The notes below the pieces were generated by a model, which did no database searches, was not told where the DNA came from, and saw only the letters and a program-made list of their open reading frames with translations. The position numbers were made by a program, and so were the translations under genes. DNA of 64,000 nucleotides from Rhizobium sp. Q54 (lineage in GTDB: Bacteria > Pseudomonadota > Alphaproteobacteria > Micropepsales > Micropepsaceae): contig CAMCWK010000014.1 of the NCBI GenBank assembly GCA_945882615.1, positions 1 through 64,000 on the forward strand. The letters are read 5' to 3'. Positions 57,225-63,380 of the stretch are shown here, piece by piece; within the stretch, counting starts at the first letter, position 1; every line of letters begins with the position of its first letter.

Positions 57225-57488
57225 ATCTCCCCATTCCAATGAGGCAAGCAGTCTGTTTCGCGGCATGCCGTTTAGCCTAGGCAAGCCAAGTCTGGAGGAA
57301 TGTCCGCTTGTGACCCAAAGCGGACATTCGGATTGGCCTGGGTTTTCAGGGCAATGCTGCTGGGCTGGTTTGCTCGGTCCTGTTCCGGCGGCCAACACAA
57401 GCCCTTGGCCGCCAGGGAACTTTTGCTGATGGTGTCAACTTCGCTTTTGCCTTAGGTTTGGCGTGGGGCAAGATTGGGGGCGGTGCCA
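57225..57488. other. Intergenic region before the exported-protein run
   Basis: These 264 bases contain an inverted repeat (listed separately) and no gene I can support. They mark the boundary between the electron-transfer pair and the block of small exported proteins. Confidence 0.5.
57298..57329. repeat. Inverted repeat with 12-bp arms
   Basis: GAATGTCCGCTT at 57298-57309 and AAGCGGACATTC at 57318-57329 are exact inverted copies around an eight-base loop. The stretch resembles dispersed palindromes seen in proteobacterial genomes, but only one copy is present here. A T-run after it is absent, so it is not an obvious terminator. Confidence 0.65.
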
Positions 57489-58328
57489 ATGAAAAATTTG
57501 GCGGGTTGGATTGTGTGCGCGGGCATGATGGCTGTGGGGTTGGCGGGCGCCGCGCAAGCGGCCTATTTCCATCCCGAAGTCCACAAAATCACGACCCAGT
57601 TTCGCGGCGACAAGATGTGTCTTGGGCCTACGATCAACGGCGCCAAAGTCAATCGCGCGCAACTGACCAGCTGCGCCGGAATGGCGGTGCAAAATTTCTT
57701 CATCAAGGCGAACGACAAGTCTGGAAAATTCTTCCGGGTGGAAAGCCAATTTCGCGACGGCATGTGCCTGGACGTGACCAATGGCGGGCCGGGAGACGGC
57801 AAGCTGGCATTTGCCCCATGCGGCAATTATTCGGGACAGGTCTGGGAGTTCAGGCCGCAAGCCGTGCCGGGCAGCTTCCAGCTCGCCAGCACCTTCCGCA
57901 AGGGACAATGCGCCGACATCGTCAATGGTGGCGCGGACAATAACGGTGCGGCGCTGGCGCCCTGTGCCAATGTCAGCGGCCAGATCTGGACCTTCGCGAC
58001 CCTCATTTCGGGGCTGCCCGTGCTGGCGTCCGCGCCAGCTCCTACGCCCAGCAAGTTGGCGATGGACGCCAAAACCAGGGCGATGTTTCTGGCCCTGCCC
58101 AAGAACCGCGACATCATCATCACCTCCGGCGACCAAGAGCTGGAGGAGGACTATGCTTGGGTGGTGTACAAATTCCTCAAATCCCGCGGCTATGACCTGG
58201 ACGAGCCGGACCGGCTGTTGATGACCTCGACGCCGCAAAGCACGATCACCATCAGTGCCAAGGACCCCGAGGCGCCGATCCAGGTGCGGGTGGGGCGCAC
58301 CGCCACCTTCACCCAGATCACGAAGTAA
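57489..58328 (+). CDS. Secreted ricin-type (R-type) lectin-domain protein
   Basis: A 279-residue exported protein: signal peptide KNLAGWIVCAGMMAVGLAGAAQA (about 23 residues), a beta-trefoil R-type lectin of some 140 residues, then an approximately 95-residue domain of unknown type. The trefoil shows the recurring pattern of Cys, Asp/Asn-rich loop and QxW: CAGMAVQNFFIKA, MCLDVTNGGPGDGKLAFAPCGNYSGQVWEF and QCADIVNGGADNNGAALAPCANVSGQIWTF. The C-terminal part (RAMFLALPKNRDIIITSGDQ and EDYAWVVYKFLKSRGYDLD) I do not recognise. The lectin probably binds glycans outside the cytoplasm. ATG 57489 is preferred. Confidence 0.85.
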   Translation: MKNLAGWIVCAGMMAVGLAGAAQAAYFHPEVHKITTQFRGDKMCLGPTINGAKVNRAQLTSCAGMAVQNFFIKANDKSGKFFRVESQFRDGMCLDVTNGGPGDGKLAFAPCGNYSGQVWEFRPQAVPGSFQLASTFRKGQCADIVNGGADNNGAALAPCANVSGQIWTFATLISGLPVLASAPAPTPSKLAMDAKTRAMFLALPKNRDIIITSGDQELEEDYAWVVYKFLKSRGYDLDEPDRLLMTSTPQSTITISAKDPEAPIQVRVGRTATFTQITK

Positions 58329-58332
58329 TCCG

Positions 58333-58890
58333 ATGGGCAGGGTTCTGGACGCCGGAAAGGCTCATCCTGACCGCACGGTTCTCAGCAACCGTTTCCGCAG
58401 CACACGCTATCTGCCGGTCATGGCGATGGGGCTGATGGGCTGGATCATGGTCACGGGCAATGCGTGGAACGCCTGGACGCTGGGCCTGATGGCGGGGCTG
58501 GCGGCGCTCTATTATCTCGTTACGCACACCAAGCGCGCCCAGTTCGACGACCATGCGCTCTATTTCCTGAAAGGCGGCAGGGAAGAGGAGAAAATTCCCT
58601 TCACCGACATCACTGCGATCAAGGCCACCGGCACCAGGATCAATCACCGTGGGGTGTGGCGCATCGAATACAAGGGCCGCGACGGCCAACCACGCAAATA
58701 CCGCTTCCTGCCGCGCACCATGTTCGACTGGCCCTATGCGTCGTCGAACTTCATTGGCTGGCCAGCCGATTTCATGACCGCAGTGGAAGATGCCAATCCC
58801 GACGTCACAATCTGGTGGCACCCCTTCTTTTTTCACGACCAGCCTTGGGCGGGCGGCTTCGGGGGCGGAATGAAGCGACCGAAAAAATGA
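58333..58890 (+). CDS. Membrane-anchored protein with a PH-like domain, unknown function
   Basis: A 185-residue protein with two adjacent hydrophobic segments (LPVMAMGLMGWIMVTG and WTLGLMAGLAALYYLV, about residues 28-60), then a beta-rich cytoplasmic or periplasmic part. HALYFLKGGREEEKIPFTDITAIKATG followed by WRIEYKGRDGQPRKYRFLP resembles bacterial PH domains (DUF304-like), an assignment by pattern only. It begins four bases after the lectin stop and ends in an ATGA overlap with the cystatin-like gene. Confidence 0.7.
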   Translation: MGRVLDAGKAHPDRTVLSNRFRSTRYLPVMAMGLMGWIMVTGNAWNAWTLGLMAGLAALYYLVTHTKRAQFDDHALYFLKGGREEEKIPFTDITAIKATGTRINHRGVWRIEYKGRDGQPRKYRFLPRTMFDWPYASSNFIGWPADFMTAVEDANPDVTIWWHPFFFHDQPWAGGFGGGMKRPKK

Positions 58891-59228
58891 AGCGAAAAAT
58901 CCTTTCCTCGACCTTCATGATCTTGGCTACCACCGTGGCACTGGCGCAGCTGCCCGACCACCGGGTGATCGCCGGCGGCTGGGAAAAATCCGTGGTTGAT
59001 GCCGAGGCGCGCCAGGCGGCCGCCCTGGCCATCACCGCCATCCGGATCAAACAGCCCAAGGCGAAGCTCGCCCGGATCACCGCAGTGGAAACGCAGGTCG
59101 TAGCAGGCCTCAATTATCGCCTGCATCTCACACTTGCCGACAAAAGCCGCTGGGAGGCAGTGGTGTGGAAAAAGCTGGACAGGGAAATGGAGGTCGTCGC
59201 CCTCACGCCCATCAGGCGAAAACCATGA
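58887..59228 (+). CDS. Exported cystatin-like protease inhibitor
   Basis: A 113-residue protein with signal peptide MKRKILSSTFMILATTVALA|Q. The mature domain matches the cystatin/stefin family (MEROPS I25) in all key places: Gly-Gly-Trp at residues 30-32 (the N-terminal Gly that enters the protease cleft), a long helix, the diagnostic first hairpin QVVAG at 70-74 in TQVVAGLNYRLHLTLAD, and a second hairpin with Trp in WEAVVWKKL followed by VVALTP. Animal and plant cystatins inhibit papain-type cysteine proteases. It overlaps its neighbours by 4 bases on each side (ATGA), so it is part of the operon. Confidence 0.85.
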   Translation: MKRKILSSTFMILATTVALAQLPDHRVIAGGWEKSVVDAEARQAAALAITAIRIKQPKAKLARITAVETQVVAGLNYRLHLTLADKSRWEAVVWKKLDREMEVVALTPIRRKP

Positions 59229-59857
59229 GACAGATGATGGCGCCCCTGCTGGTCGCGCTTGTTTTGTGCGGCTGCGACGACAAGCCCGCCAAACCGCCCG
59301 CCGCCTCGTCCAAACCAGCCGCGGTGCAGACGGCGCTGAAAACATCGATCGCAGAGGAGCGCGACTGGACCGATGACGAACTGCATGAATACGGCCAGGT
59401 CACGAAGGTGGTGGACATGCGCCATCCACATTACCTGATCATCTTCGATCTCCAAAGCGGCGCGAAGGATTTCGCATTCTTGGCCAATGTCGAGACCTTG
59501 GGCCTGACCACCCCGCCGGAAAAACTGGTCGGCGGCGATTATATCCCCTTCTATTACATCAGTTCGGAATCGCCGCCCCTGCGCGACCTGCGGCTGGACG
59601 GCAAATCGTTGATACCGCCGATGCAAGCGGGCGCCGATCCGAGGTGGAAACAGTTGACCGGCACGCTTGAAGGGGCGGACAAGGCGGCGGCCCCCGGCAT
59701 GCCCGACGCCAATATTCGCATCAAACCCGCCAACGGCAAGGCGATGACATTTTCCATTCATGTCACGTCCGACATCGCGGCGGCCAATGGCAAGACTGTC
59801 ACGGCCTTTTACAAGGAAGGCGAGTTGGACAACCACCTCACCTATCTGAAGCCCTAG
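59225..59857 (+). CDS. Lipoprotein of a local paralogous family, two-module form
   Basis: A 210-residue lipoprotein: signal MMAPLLVALVLCGC (lipobox near LVLCGC) and a DDKPAKPPA linker. It then has two copies of a beta-rich module. The first begins GQVTKVVDMRHPHYLIIFDLQSGAKDF; the second begins LTGTLEGADKAAA and ends with KTVTAFYKEGELDNHLTYLKP. Similar endings occur in the lipoproteins at 62113-62490 and 62520-63146. I do not recognise the family. It overlaps the upstream cystatin-like gene by ATGA. Confidence 0.75.
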   Translation: MRQMMAPLLVALVLCGCDDKPAKPPAASSKPAAVQTALKTSIAEERDWTDDELHEYGQVTKVVDMRHPHYLIIFDLQSGAKDFAFLANVETLGLTTPPEKLVGGDYIPFYYISSESPPLRDLRLDGKSLIPPMQAGADPRWKQLTGTLEGADKAAAPGMPDANIRIKPANGKAMTFSIHVTSDIAAANGKTVTAFYKEGELDNHLTYLKP

Positions 59858-59867
59858 GAGATTCGAG

Positions 59868-60332
59868 ATGAAGCACTTTCTGCTCGGCGTGCTGGCCCTG
59901 TCCGCGATGGTGCTTCCCGCTGCGGGGGCGAGCGTTACGCGCTGCGCCGACAATCCGAATGTGGCGCAGCCGGCCAACGCCGCCCAGCCCCAGGAGAAAT
60001 ACACGCGCCGCTTTTCCAACGGCGCCATACGCGTGAGCGTGATGGATACGGAGGAGCCGGCCTGCTGCTCCTGGCACCTGATGATCCAGAGCCCGGCGGG
60101 CGCAGGCAAGAAAGCCGCGCCCGCCTGCCATATCGTGAGTGATAGCAAGACCGGCGGATTTTCCGGTGTTGATTTCGCCAGGCTGACATCCTCCTACGAC
60201 CCCAAGAAAGGCGTACTGCTGACGGTGCCGGTCAGGATTTACGACATGAAAAAAAGCGACGGGTCCAGCCGGCCAGGCGTCGCCCGGGTGCGGATCAACA
60301 GCGCGACCGGCAGCGTGACGGTGGAAAAATGA
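59868..60332 (+). CDS. Exported protein of unknown function
   Basis: A 154-residue secreted protein with signal KHFLLGVLALSAMVLPAAGA. The mature part has several cysteines (RCADNPN, CCSWHLMI, ACHIVSD), suggesting disulfides, and ends with strands SRPGVARVRINSATGSVTVEK. AGGAG and GAG ahead of ATG 59868 give a ribosome binding site. It is the fifth gene of the run, 10 bases after the previous stop. No family recognised. Confidence 0.7.
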   Translation: MKHFLLGVLALSAMVLPAAGASVTRCADNPNVAQPANAAQPQEKYTRRFSNGAIRVSVMDTEEPACCSWHLMIQSPAGAGKKAAPACHIVSDSKTGGFSGVDFARLTSSYDPKKGVLLTVPVRIYDMKKSDGSSRPGVARVRINSATGSVTVEK

Positions 60333-60354
60333 AAAGCGGACGGAGACGCGCCCA

Positions 60355-60660
60355 ATGGTGAAAAGCCGCTGGTGGCTGCTGCTGTCTCTCGCCTGGGTTG
60401 GCGTGGGGGTGGCGTCGGTGTTCCCCCTGGTAATGCTGTCCATGGCGTTCGACGCGCCGGGGTCCGAGAAAGATATGTGGCTAATAGCGGCGGTCGGCTC
60501 CATGGCCTTCTTCCCGGTTTCCTGCCTGCTGGGGGCGGTTCTGCCCTGGCTGTTCCGGCGCTGGCGCTTCGCCCTCATGCTGTTCGGGGTGCCGGTTCTG
60601 AATGTCGTCCTATCGGCCCTGCTGCTTTGGCTGATGTTCCAACTGGGGATCATGCATTGA
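60355..60660 (+). CDS. Small integral membrane protein, unknown function
   Basis: A 101-residue protein with three strongly hydrophobic segments: WWLLLSLAWVGVGVASVFPLVML, MWLIAAVGSMAFFPVSCLLGAVL and ALMLFGVPVLNVVLSALLLWLMFQL. No charged signature motifs. It is coupled to the next gene (TGATG overlap). No family recognised. Confidence 0.7.
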   Translation: MVKSRWWLLLSLAWVGVGVASVFPLVMLSMAFDAPGSEKDMWLIAAVGSMAFFPVSCLLGAVLPWLFRRWRFALMLFGVPVLNVVLSALLLWLMFQLGIMH

Positions 60661-61175
60661 TGCGCAATCTTCTCTTCGTTCCACTGGTGATCGCGTCGCT
60701 GGCAGGCGCCAGCGCCGCTCCGATGGCGGTCTCCGCGCGGGATCAAACCGCGATCCGGGCGTTTCTAACCCGCGTCTATTCCAGCTACAAGGAATGCAAG
60801 GCCAGCATGGCGAAGTGCGCCGATCCGATGGATCGCAAAAGCGTGTTCACGCCCGGCACCCTGAGCCTGATCGCCACCAACGTGAAGCTCAATCAGGGTG
60901 AAGCGGGCGCCGCAACCGGGTCCGACCCGATCTGCGGCTGCCAGGACCACGGAACCATCAAGGTCAACAGTATCACGCTCACGCCCAGCGCCGACGGCCG
61001 TGTGCTGGTCAAGGTCCGGTTCAAGAACTTCGAGCCCGGCGCCGCGTCGCTTGTGATGGAAAACACGCCGGGCGGATGGCGCGTGCATGATGTTCTGGGA
61101 GAAAGCCCCAGCTATCGCGGCGCCATCATTGCCGAGAACCAGACGTTGGCCAGGCCGGCCACAAAGGGACGCTAG
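60660..61175 (+). CDS. Exported DUF3828-like protein
   Basis: A 171-residue exported protein (signal RNLLFVPLVIASLAGASAAP). The mature domain resembles DUF3828: IRAFLTRVYSSYKECK, SDPICGCQDHGTIKVNSITLTP, VLVKVRFKNFEPGAASLVMENTPGGWRVHDVLG. DUF3828 proteins are envelope proteins of unknown function with an NTF2-like or cystatin-like fold. It starts in the stop of the preceding membrane protein gene. The assignment is tentative. Confidence 0.65.
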   Translation: MRNLLFVPLVIASLAGASAAPMAVSARDQTAIRAFLTRVYSSYKECKASMAKCADPMDRKSVFTPGTLSLIATNVKLNQGEAGAATGSDPICGCQDHGTIKVNSITLTPSADGRVLVKVRFKNFEPGAASLVMENTPGGWRVHDVLGESPSYRGAIIAENQTLARPATKGR

Positions 61176-61209
61176 TCTGCGAAATTTTTAAGATGTGGAG
61201 AAAATCACG

Positions 61210-62085
61210 ATGAAATACCGGACGTGTTTTCCCGTGCTTCTGGCCGTAGCGCTTGCTCTGTCCGCCTGTGACGACAAGCCCGCCAAGCCGCCTGCGGGGC
61301 AGGCAGCGGTGAAACAAGACGCGGCTGCGGCCCAGCCGTCCGGGCCGGCGGATACCAAGCTGGGCGTGACCGGGAGTGACTGGGAGTTGCGCTACAAAGG
61401 CCTGTACCGAAAGGACTACAACCCTGTCACCATGGAGCTGCAAAAGCGCGGGCGGGTTGTCACCGGCTTCGCCACTTACCAGTATGGAGTGCAGCCGCCT
61501 GAACGTCATGAGGTGAAGGGGGAAATCAACGCCGACGGTTCCTTCAGCATTGCAGAGGATATGAGCATTGTGTGGAAAGGAACGGTGGACGCCTCAGGCG
61601 CCCTGTCCGGAAACAGGGACCTTCCCGGCCCGGACGGACACAACTTCAAGAATTCCGTGAACAACTTCCTGCTGAAGCGCATACAGGTGCTATCGCCCGG
61701 CACGGTCGCCGGCGTGATGCCTTTGACGCCCACCACATCCGATTTGCCGGAATTTCTGCAAAGGCTGAAAGCGGGCGTGAAGCAACGAGACCGGACCGCC
61801 CTGCGCGCCTTGATGCATCCGCTATTTACCGCGCGAAACTACGACCCCGGTGCCGATGCCTGGATCAAGGGCATGGCAGACACGACCGATCAACCCTGGG
61901 AGGAACTGGAACGGGCGGTGCGTACCGCGCCCAAGGCGATCGATCCGTCTCCCCTGGGCCGTCCGCAGATGGAAATTTACAGAAAAAGCGCCTGTTCCGG
62001 GTGCCGGTATGGCATTTCCCTGTTGTTTGAGCGCGGCGATGACCTGCACTGGCGCTGGACTTCACTGGATGCGCCGGGAGATTGA
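61210..62085 (+). CDS. Lipoprotein of unknown function
   Basis: A 291-residue lipoprotein with signal RTCFPVLLAVALALSACDDKP and a KPAKPPAG linker as in its neighbours. The body has a beta-rich N-terminal half (SDWELRYKGLYRKDYNPVTMEL, GFATYQYGVQPPERHEVKGEINADGSF) and a helical half (LPEFLQRLKAGVKQRDRTALRALMHPLF). Near the C-terminus ACSGCRYGISLLFER carries a Cys pair. It does not show the small module of the other lipoproteins. GGAGAAAAT precedes ATG 61210. Confidence 0.72.
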   Translation: MKYRTCFPVLLAVALALSACDDKPAKPPAGQAAVKQDAAAAQPSGPADTKLGVTGSDWELRYKGLYRKDYNPVTMELQKRGRVVTGFATYQYGVQPPERHEVKGEINADGSFSIAEDMSIVWKGTVDASGALSGNRDLPGPDGHNFKNSVNNFLLKRIQVLSPGTVAGVMPLTPTTSDLPEFLQRLKAGVKQRDRTALRALMHPLFTARNYDPGADAWIKGMADTTDQPWEELERAVRTAPKAIDPSPLGRPQMEIYRKSACSGCRYGISLLFERGDDLHWRWTSLDAPGD

Positions 62086-62112
62086 TGGTCCGGGCGGGTG
62101 ACCGTGAAATCC

Positions 62113-62490
62113 CTAGGGCGCCGGCCGGACCTTCAGGTAGGTGACATGATTGTCCCCACCGCCGTAATAGACCGTCACCCATTTTCCCATCAGCTTGTCG
62201 CGCCCGCCGTAAGTCTCCAGCGTCTTCGCGCTGGCCGGCAGGTCGAAGCTGACCGCGCCATTGTTGGATTCAAAGGTGACCGTGAAGCCGGAATCGCCGG
62301 CGGGTTTGATGGCGGTGATCTGCCCGGCCCCCTGCACCTCGTCGCTGGCCAGCGCGCGCTCCCCGGCGGTGGCGGTTGCCGCCGCCGTTCCTTGCCCGGA
62401 TGCCTGGCCGGCAGGCTTGGCGGGTTCGCTGTCACAGGCCGACAGAACAAGCGCGGCGGCCAGAAGCGCGGGGATGGAGGATTTCATCAT
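62113..62490 (-). CDS. Lipoprotein of the local paralogous family, one-module form
   Basis: A 125-residue lipoprotein: signal KSSIPALLAAALVLSACDSEP, a KPAGQASGQGTAAATATAGE linker, then one beta-rich module: GAGQITAIKPAGDSGFTVTFES, GAVSFDLPASAKTLETYGG and KWVTVYYGGGDNHVTYLKV. The ending matches the second module of the protein at 59225-59857. GGGAAG precedes ATG 62490; an ATG at 62520 would bury the signal. It is coupled to the next lipoprotein gene upstream (62520-63146) on the same strand. Confidence 0.75.
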   Translation of the reverse strand: MMKSSIPALLAAALVLSACDSEPAKPAGQASGQGTAAATATAGERALASDEVQGAGQITAIKPAGDSGFTVTFESNNGAVSFDLPASAKTLETYGGRDKLMGKWVTVYYGGGDNHVTYLKVRPAP

Positions 62491-62519
62491 GGTTGGCTTC
62501 CCTTTTTCAGTGGCGGGCA

Positions 62520-63146
62520 TCAGCGCCTGACCCGGGTGACGCGGTTTTCGGTGCGCATATCGTAGAAAGCGGTCACCAGTTTGCCGTTGGCCGGGACCAT
62601 CTCGTCATTGATGTAAATATCAAAGCTCACCTTTATGCCATCGCGGCCGGTGACGGTGATCGTGTCGGGCAGGTCCCCGCCGCTGGGCGCGCCGGCATCG
62701 CTGAGCGTGCCGGTGATGTTCTTCCAGGCCGGATCAAAATTCTTGGGCGCGTCGCTGCCCAGCACGGAACGTTCGCCGCCGCGATGATCCACCGTCATGT
62801 CCATCAGATTGGGCTTTTCGCGGCTGATATAGGTGACGGTCACGCCCAGGCCCGGTTTCAGGGCGGCGATCTCCAGCCCAACCAGATCCACGTCTTCCGC
62901 GTTGAGATCGAGGGAAAGCACATCGCCGGCGGCCGGCTGGAGCGTGAGGGTGAACATGGGATAGGGGCCGTCATCCAGCCGGGTGATACTGCCGCTGACC
63001 CGATGTTCGACGGGTTTGGTCTCGGCGATTGGCGCCGCTGGCTTTTGCGTGACGGCGGCTTGCGGCGGGGGCTCGGCGGGCGGCTTTTCATCACAACCGC
63101 TCAAGGCAAGGTAAGCCATGGCCGTTAAAATAACGCGTAATTTCAT
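62520..63146 (-). CDS. Lipoprotein of the local paralogous family, two-module form
   Basis: A 208-residue lipoprotein with signal LRVILTAMAYLALSGCDEKP and a Pro/Ala linker. The first module starts GSITRLDDGPYPMFTLTLQP; the second starts ITGTLSDAGAPSGGDLPD and ends DIYINDEMVPANGKLVTAFYDMRTENRVTRVRR. The layout parallels that of 59225-59857 (ITGTL... / LTGTL..., PANGK.VTAFY / AANGKTVTAFY). It is the first gene of a two-gene minus-strand unit. Confidence 0.75.
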   Translation of the reverse strand: MKLRVILTAMAYLALSGCDEKPPAEPPPQAAVTQKPAAPIAETKPVEHRVSGSITRLDDGPYPMFTLTLQPAAGDVLSLDLNAEDVDLVGLEIAALKPGLGVTVTYISREKPNLMDMTVDHRGGERSVLGSDAPKNFDPAWKNITGTLSDAGAPSGGDLPDTITVTGRDGIKVSFDIYINDEMVPANGKLVTAFYDMRTENRVTRVRR

Positions 63147-63380
63147 TGTTTAGCCCTTGGTGACGCGCATCCCTTCAAAGGTTCCGCGAGTTCCCGCACG
63201 CAGGGAACCACGTTATTGTATCCCCTGACAACTTGTATCGGGCGAACGCGGGAATGTTCCGGCCATGAGAAGGCTAGGAATGGCTGGGGACACAAAGGGC
63301 GCGCGCCCTGTGCACAGCGAATTCGCCAACTCCGTAGGGCGGCGGCATCGACCGGCGGCGCCCTCGGCGCAATATTTGCG

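What the first reader, a model, noticed from the sequence alone, without database searches (positions are those of the whole stretch)
58887..59228. Bacterial cystatin with complete motif set and signal peptide
GGW at 30-32, QVVAG at 70-74 and a second-hairpin Trp reproduce the inhibitory wedge of eukaryotic cystatins. Bacterial cystatins are rare. Here the inhibitor is exported and translationally coupled to membrane and lipoprotein genes, so it could block cysteine proteases of hosts, predators or competitors, or a self protease.
Basis: partly seen in the sequence, partly recalled or inferred. Interest (0 to 1): 0.75.

Follow-up and report, generated by a model that had tools for sequence, protein, structure and literature searches.

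The report
Secreted bacterial cystatin, a protease inhibitor
This gene makes a small exported bacterial protein with the fold and most of the protease-blocking surface of the cystatins known from animals and plants; it is a genuine but not unprecedented member of a rare, scattered and (in the papers I could search) untested bacterial branch, which probably blocks cysteine proteases of other organisms.

Summary
The ORF (58887-59228, 113 aa) is real and encodes a genuine cystatin. Pfam scores fall just below cut-offs (SQAPI 25.2 of 31 bits; Cystatin 18.6 of 22.2), but a profile of 34 bacterial relatives built without the query finds it at 3e-26, a profile of eukaryotic cystatins finds it too, and a model made from bacterial sequences only matches solved cystatins (Z 11-12). 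GG (30-31) and QVVAG (70-74) are as reported. The "second-hairpin Trp" is not: W89 and W94 lie in strand 4, and the L2 tip is KKLDRE, a Leu-type loop like that of tick sialostatins, not Pro-Trp. So the wedge is two canonical parts plus a variant third. The protein has a plain signal peptide, no cysteine, and ATGA overlaps with both neighbours, inside an island whose cystatin and adjacent membrane gene occur in no other held genome of its order. Relatives occur patchily in Vibrio, Hyphomonadaceae, Verrucomicrobiota, Planctomycetota and Acidobacteriota, mostly as lipoproteins. Bacterial cystatins were described in 2009; this is a new member. No papain-family (C1) peptidase was found in its genome, so an outside target is the best guess. 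Inhibition itself is untested.

The parts
58887..59228 (+). cystatin gene (113 aa, stop included in coordinates)
58887..58946 (+). predicted signal peptide MKRKILSSTFMILATTVALA, cleavage before Q21; no lipobox Cys
   Evidence: sequence and hydropathy; no signal-peptide predictor was available
58974..58982 (+). GGW (30-32): N-terminal part of the inhibitory wedge; G30 35/35 and G31 34/35 in bacterial relatives, columns not used to find them
59094..59108 (+). QVVAG (70-74): first hairpin loop L1
59169..59186 (+). KKLDRE (95-100): second hairpin loop L2, Leu97 in place of Pro-Trp
58333..58890 (+). upstream membrane protein (185 aa), stop overlaps cystatin ATG (ATGA)
59225..59857 (+). downstream lipoprotein (210 aa; LVLCGC lipobox), ATG overlaps cystatin stop (ATGA)
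57489..58328 (+). exported ricin-B-type lectin protein, first gene of the likely operon
   Evidence: Pfam Ricin_B_lectin 7e-11

Best explanation
An exported, soluble, cysteine-free cystatin. After signal peptide removal, the GG trunk, the QVVAG loop and a Leu-type L2 loop form a wedge that enters the active-site cleft of papain-family (clan CA, C1) cysteine endopeptidases as a reversible tight-binding inhibitor; the Leu-type L2 predicts a narrower, cathepsin L-like endopeptidase range. The target is most likely foreign (proteases of eukaryotic grazers, hosts or neighbouring microbes met in the periplasm or outside the cell), because its own genome shows no C1 peptidase. Shown here: the gene, fold homology, conservation of GG and QVVAG, coupling, accessory distribution. 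Inferred: inhibition, target and ecological role.
For: Profile of bacterial relatives matches 49 distinct PDB sequences at E<=0.01, all of the listed matches being cystatins or close kin; the model (pLDDT 86, pTM 0.74), made from bacterial sequences only and without templates, matches cystatin structures including tarocystatin-papain 3ima (Z 12.2, 1.8 A, 79 residues) and cathepsin K-cystatin C 8v57 (Z 11.7). G30/G31 are 35/35 and 34/35 conserved although the search pattern covered only residues 68-77. No C1 peptidase in own genome at E<=0.01 (control genomes rang). Sialostatins, the tick cystatins said to lack the L2 Pro-Trp, still inhibit cathepsin L (PMC8161381; PMC8548845). Precedent in mechanism from another fold: the exported chagasin-like Cip1 of Pseudomonas syringae inhibits tomato papain-like immune proteases (PMC5014320).
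Against: No biochemical evidence for any bacterial cystatin turned up in the library. Cystatin folds can lose or change activity (monellin, SQAPI; PMC2784779), and monellin matches the model about as well as cystatins do. The best Pfam family is SQAPI, an aspartic-protease inhibitor. The Pro-Trp of L2 is missing. No gene context points to a target. A periplasmic protein without a lipobox may never leave the cell.
Confidence: 0.68

Rival explanations
1. Immunity or self-protection: it inhibits papain-fold peptidoglycan peptidases (NlpC/P60, CHAP or secretion-system amidases), either its own or those delivered by competitors.
For: Most bacterial relatives read as lipoproteins, i.e. stay at the cell envelope; one NlpC/P60 gene exists in the genome; accessory, patchy distribution.
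Against: Cystatins are not known to inhibit NlpC/P60 enzymes; the wedge is matched to C1 clefts; no effector or secretion gene recurs among the sampled neighbours (best-represented families occur in 3 of 70, top 25 only shown).
Confidence: 0.12
2. A cystatin fold put to another use: a binding protein or an inhibitor of another protease class (as in SQAPI or monellin), without papain inhibition.
For: SQAPI is the best Pfam hit (2.2e-5); L2 Pro-Trp missing; the query has a very long branch (1.55), so it evolves fast.
Against: GG and QVVAG are retained exactly; SQAPI also matches 23 of the 35 bacterial members, so this hit reflects fold kinship rather than function.
Confidence: 0.15
3. Regulator of an endogenous cysteine peptidase outside family C1.
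For: Operon coupling with envelope genes.
Against: No C1 peptidase in the genome; gene absent from all other 95 held genomes of the order, hard to square with a housekeeping partner. Other clan CA families apart from NlpC/P60 were not searched.
Confidence: 0.05

Closest known systems
Bacterial cystatins of Vibrio, Photobacterium, Geobacter, Polaribacter (Kordis and Turk 2009, PMC2784779)
   Same: Exported single-domain cystatins with GG, QVV(A/S)G and a Leu-type L2; Vibrio members are 23-31% identical to the query in the full-length alignment
   Different: The query has a plain signal peptide and no cysteine; the Vibrio ones compared are mostly lipoproteins with a likely Cys pair; that paper listed no cystatin or stefin in Alphaproteobacteria
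Cystatin of an uncultured alphaproteobacterium, locus L006
   Same: 47% identity over the best segment, sister in the tree (83/95), same VVW(K/R)(K/R)LD L2 region
   Different: Lipoprotein, stands next to a SUKH-1 (SMI1/KNR4) gene, no shared neighbours with the window
Tick sialostatin L2 (PDB 3LH4, family I25B)
   Same: GG, exported, Leu-type L2 (YRNLQGE) without Pro-Trp
   Different: QTVAG instead of QVVAG in L1, disulfides, about 20 more residues between strands; tree does not place the query with it specifically
Phytocystatins (tarocystatin 3IMA, potato multicystatin 4LZI)
   Same: No cysteine, best structural matches (Z 12.2-12.4), VW in strand 4
   Different: Phytocystatins carry Pro-Trp (or Val/Glu-Trp) in L2; 23-24% identity
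Chagasin-like inhibitors (I42), e.g. Cip1 of Pseudomonas syringae
   Same: Exported bacterial inhibitors of papain-family proteases (PMC5014320)
   Different: Different motifs (NPTTG, GxGG, RPW) and a different family; works like, is not a member

Membership tests
Cystatin superfamily (MEROPS I25) | Cystatin fold: helix wrapped by a five-strand antiparallel sheet | tested here: met
   Model E-H-E-E-E-E, pLDDT 86; Z 11-12 to cystatins
Cystatin superfamily (MEROPS I25) | Sequence homology to cystatins | tested here: met
   Eukaryote-only profile E 7e-8 on the window ORFs; bacterial profile matches PDB cystatins down to 3e-18; but Pfam curated cut-offs are narrowly missed by the single sequence
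Cystatin superfamily (MEROPS I25) | N-terminal conserved Gly | tested here: met
   G30 G31; 35/35 and 34/35 in relatives
Cystatin superfamily (MEROPS I25) | L1 motif QxVxG | tested here: met
   QVVAG 70-74 at the strand 2/3 turn of the model
Type 2 cystatins (I25B) | Pro-Trp in L2 | tested here: not met
   L2 is KKLDRE; W89 and W94 lie in strand 4. Sialostatins also lack it
Type 2 cystatins (I25B) | Signal peptide | tested here: met
   Sequence and hydropathy only
Type 2 cystatins (I25B) | Two conserved disulfides | tested here: not met
   No cysteine in the protein
Stefins (I25A) | No signal peptide, intracellular, no disulfide | tested here: not met
   No disulfide, but a signal peptide is present
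SQAPI (Pfam PF16845) | Score above the curated cut-off and aspartic protease inhibition | tested here: not met
   25.2 of 31 bits; inhibition not testable here
Cystatin superfamily (MEROPS I25) | Inhibition of C1 peptidases | not testable with these tools
   Needs an enzyme assay

The most novel reading that the evidence does not exclude
Bacterial envelope cystatins form a widespread, largely unstudied class of surface or periplasmic inhibitors, with a Leu-type L2, that shield bacteria from papain-fold enzymes of predators or competitors (including peptidoglycan amidases), and the family may have arisen or diversified in bacteria rather than being recent gifts from eukaryotes.
Probability: 0.12. 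Interest if true: 0.7.

Novelty: new member of a known kind. Interest (0 to 1): 0.42.

Why it matters
Bacterial cystatins were predicted in 2009 and I found no later biochemical work on them in the library. This one comes with 44 relatives from several phyla, so a simple papain/cathepsin assay on three or four of them would show whether bacteria use the inhibitor fold best known from animals and plants against the proteases of other organisms. The Leu-type L2 gives a precise prediction of specificity.

Tried and rejected
Pfam Cystatin search of whole genomes: no hits even in the own genome, so that model is too insensitive in six-frame searches and its zero counts were not used as absence. Single-sequence search of genome contigs found nothing; the four-row alignment succeeded. 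Viral contigs: 15 pattern matches, none a relative; phage records: no match. PHROGs and PADLOC: nothing for the cystatin; NCBIfam: only noise. Neighbour genes of relatives show no recurring partner in the top 25 families, but rarer families were not listed, so a C1 peptidase beside some relative is not excluded. Tree test of eukaryotic against bacterial cystatins: holding eukaryotes together is not rejected (p-AU 0.44), ticks fall weakly among bacteria, the query has a long branch; direction of transfer undecided. Plasmid hits of a neighbouring gene did not name the host either.

Full report
The observation. The ORF at 58887-59228 is intact and starts with ATG; it encodes MKRKILSSTFMILATTVALA|QLPDHRVIAGGWEKSVVDAEARQAAALAITAIRIKQPKAKLARITAVETQVVAGLNYRLHLTLADKSRWEAVVWKKLDREMEVVALTPIRRKP. 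Its start overlaps the stop of the upstream membrane gene and its stop overlaps the start of the downstream lipoprotein gene, ATGA in both cases. The N-terminus reads as a type I signal peptide and the protein has no cysteine.

Is it a cystatin? As a single sequence it lies just below two curated Pfam cut-offs (SQAPI 25.2 of 31 bits, Cystatin 18.6 of 22.2) and its best solved relative is a tick cystatin (8r28, E 1.5e-4). A search of one-per-species genomes with an alignment of the query and three Vibrio cystatins gave 44 bacterial relatives. In the 35-row alignment A2, 33 members match Pfam Cystatin at E<=0.01, and the profile of A2 matches 49 distinct PDB sequences, the listed ones being cystatins, stefins and close kin. 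A profile without the query finds it at 3.3e-26 in the window; a profile of twelve eukaryotic cystatins alone finds it at 7.4e-8; 20,000 shuffles stay far below. A template-free model built from bacterial sequences only (pLDDT 86, pTM 0.74) has the cystatin order strand-helix-four strands and aligns with potato multicystatin (Z 12.4), tarocystatin in its papain complex (Z 12.2, 1.8 A) and cystatin C in its cathepsin K complex (Z 11.7). The sweet protein monellin, which has the same fold, scores as well; the fold alone does not prove inhibition.

The wedge. G30 is present in 35 of 35 and G31 in 34 of 35 rows; these columns were not part of the search pattern, which covered residues 68-77 only, so their conservation is an independent sign that the wedge is kept. 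The conservation of QVVAG itself is biased by that pattern. One verrucomicrobial relative (L046) has WQPWRTPD there, which shows where Pro-Trp would sit. Most cystatins have Pro-Trp in L2; sialostatins do not (PMC8161381) and still inhibit cathepsin L (PMC8548845). The sialostatin L2 sequence ends VIYRNLQGEKSISSF, close to the bacterial consensus VVYRxLxGxxxxTS. From this I infer a working wedge with narrowed specificity.

Distribution. Of 398 genomes sampled evenly in its phylum, 10 hold a match, its own included; six are of one genus, which is Vibrio since one of its loci is identical in sequence to a named V. splendidus locus. Vibrio is of the same phylum but not of the same class as the window, so the host is probably an alphaproteobacterium; it was not named. 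Among 96 genomes of its order only the window's own has the cystatin, and the adjacent membrane gene is equally unique. The coupled lipoprotein has two paralogues in the same island and one faint match elsewhere in the family, the lectin gene only partial matches in three other genomes. The island has GC 0.617 against 0.642 in the rest of the window. So this is an accessory gene in an accessory island. Relatives come from Hyphomonadaceae, Chitinibacteraceae, Shewanella, Halioglobus, Verrucomicrobiota, Planctomycetota and Acidobacteriota, and most start like lipoproteins. Many of these are metagenome bins, so single taxon labels may be wrong. The query's nearest relative is L006, an uncultured alphaproteobacterium (support 83/95). 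The tree cannot tell one transfer from several, nor its direction.

Function. The genome has no detectable papain-family C1 peptidase (control genomes rang) and one NlpC/P60 gene. With export, accessory distribution and conserved wedge, I judge an outside papain-type protease the most likely target. An exported bacterial inhibitor of papain-like host proteases is known from another family: Cip1 of Pseudomonas syringae, chagasin-like (PMC5014320). Kordis and Turk proposed the same kind of role for bacterial cystatins (PMC2784779). None of this shows inhibition; the family name describes ancestry and fold.

Known or new. Bacterial cystatins were reported in 2009 in Vibrio, Photobacterium, Geobacter and Polaribacter, with none in Alphaproteobacteria (PMC2784779). 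The held library yields only that paper and one review using the term for this subject. This is therefore a new member of a known but experimentally neglected kind, with a broader phylum range than the 2009 list and with a variant L2.

Noticed in passing
window 57230-63150: Island of small envelope genes (ricin-type lectin, membrane protein, cystatin, lipoproteins, DUF3828-like protein) between a ferredoxin gene and a metallo-beta-lactamase-fold gene; cystatin and membrane gene absent from all other held genomes of the order; GC 0.617 against 0.642.
   Followed up: partly
window 59225-59857, 62113-62520 (-), 62520-63146 (-), 61195-62085: Three paralogous lipoproteins, and a fourth unrelated one sharing only the nearly identical signal and tail 'CDDKPAKPPA', suggesting local duplication and leader exchange.
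   Followed up: partly
L049 5980-7101 and window 60660-61175: A Pyrinomonadaceae relative fuses a cystatin to a DUF3828-like domain (E 0.0027, below cut-off); the window's island holds a separate DUF3828-like protein weakly similar to it (pairwise E 6e-5).
   Followed up: partly
L014 5950-7251: Cystatin domain fused to a BNR (sialidase-like) domain in a Verrucomicrobiaceae bin.
   Followed up: partly
L039 4234-6255: Amidohydrolase fused to a C-terminal cystatin domain in Halioglobus pacificus.
   Followed up: partly
L046 4201-4578: One verrucomicrobial cystatin has a Pro-Trp L2 (WQPWRTPD), unlike the other bacterial members.
   Followed up: no
L006 519-1046 (-): Nearest relative of the query lies beside a SUKH-1 (SMI1/KNR4) gene, a family known for immunity proteins.
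   Followed up: no
whole genomes, Pfam PF00031: The Pfam Cystatin model found none of the bacterial cystatins in six-frame genome searches, so annotation probably undercounts them.
   Followed up: partly
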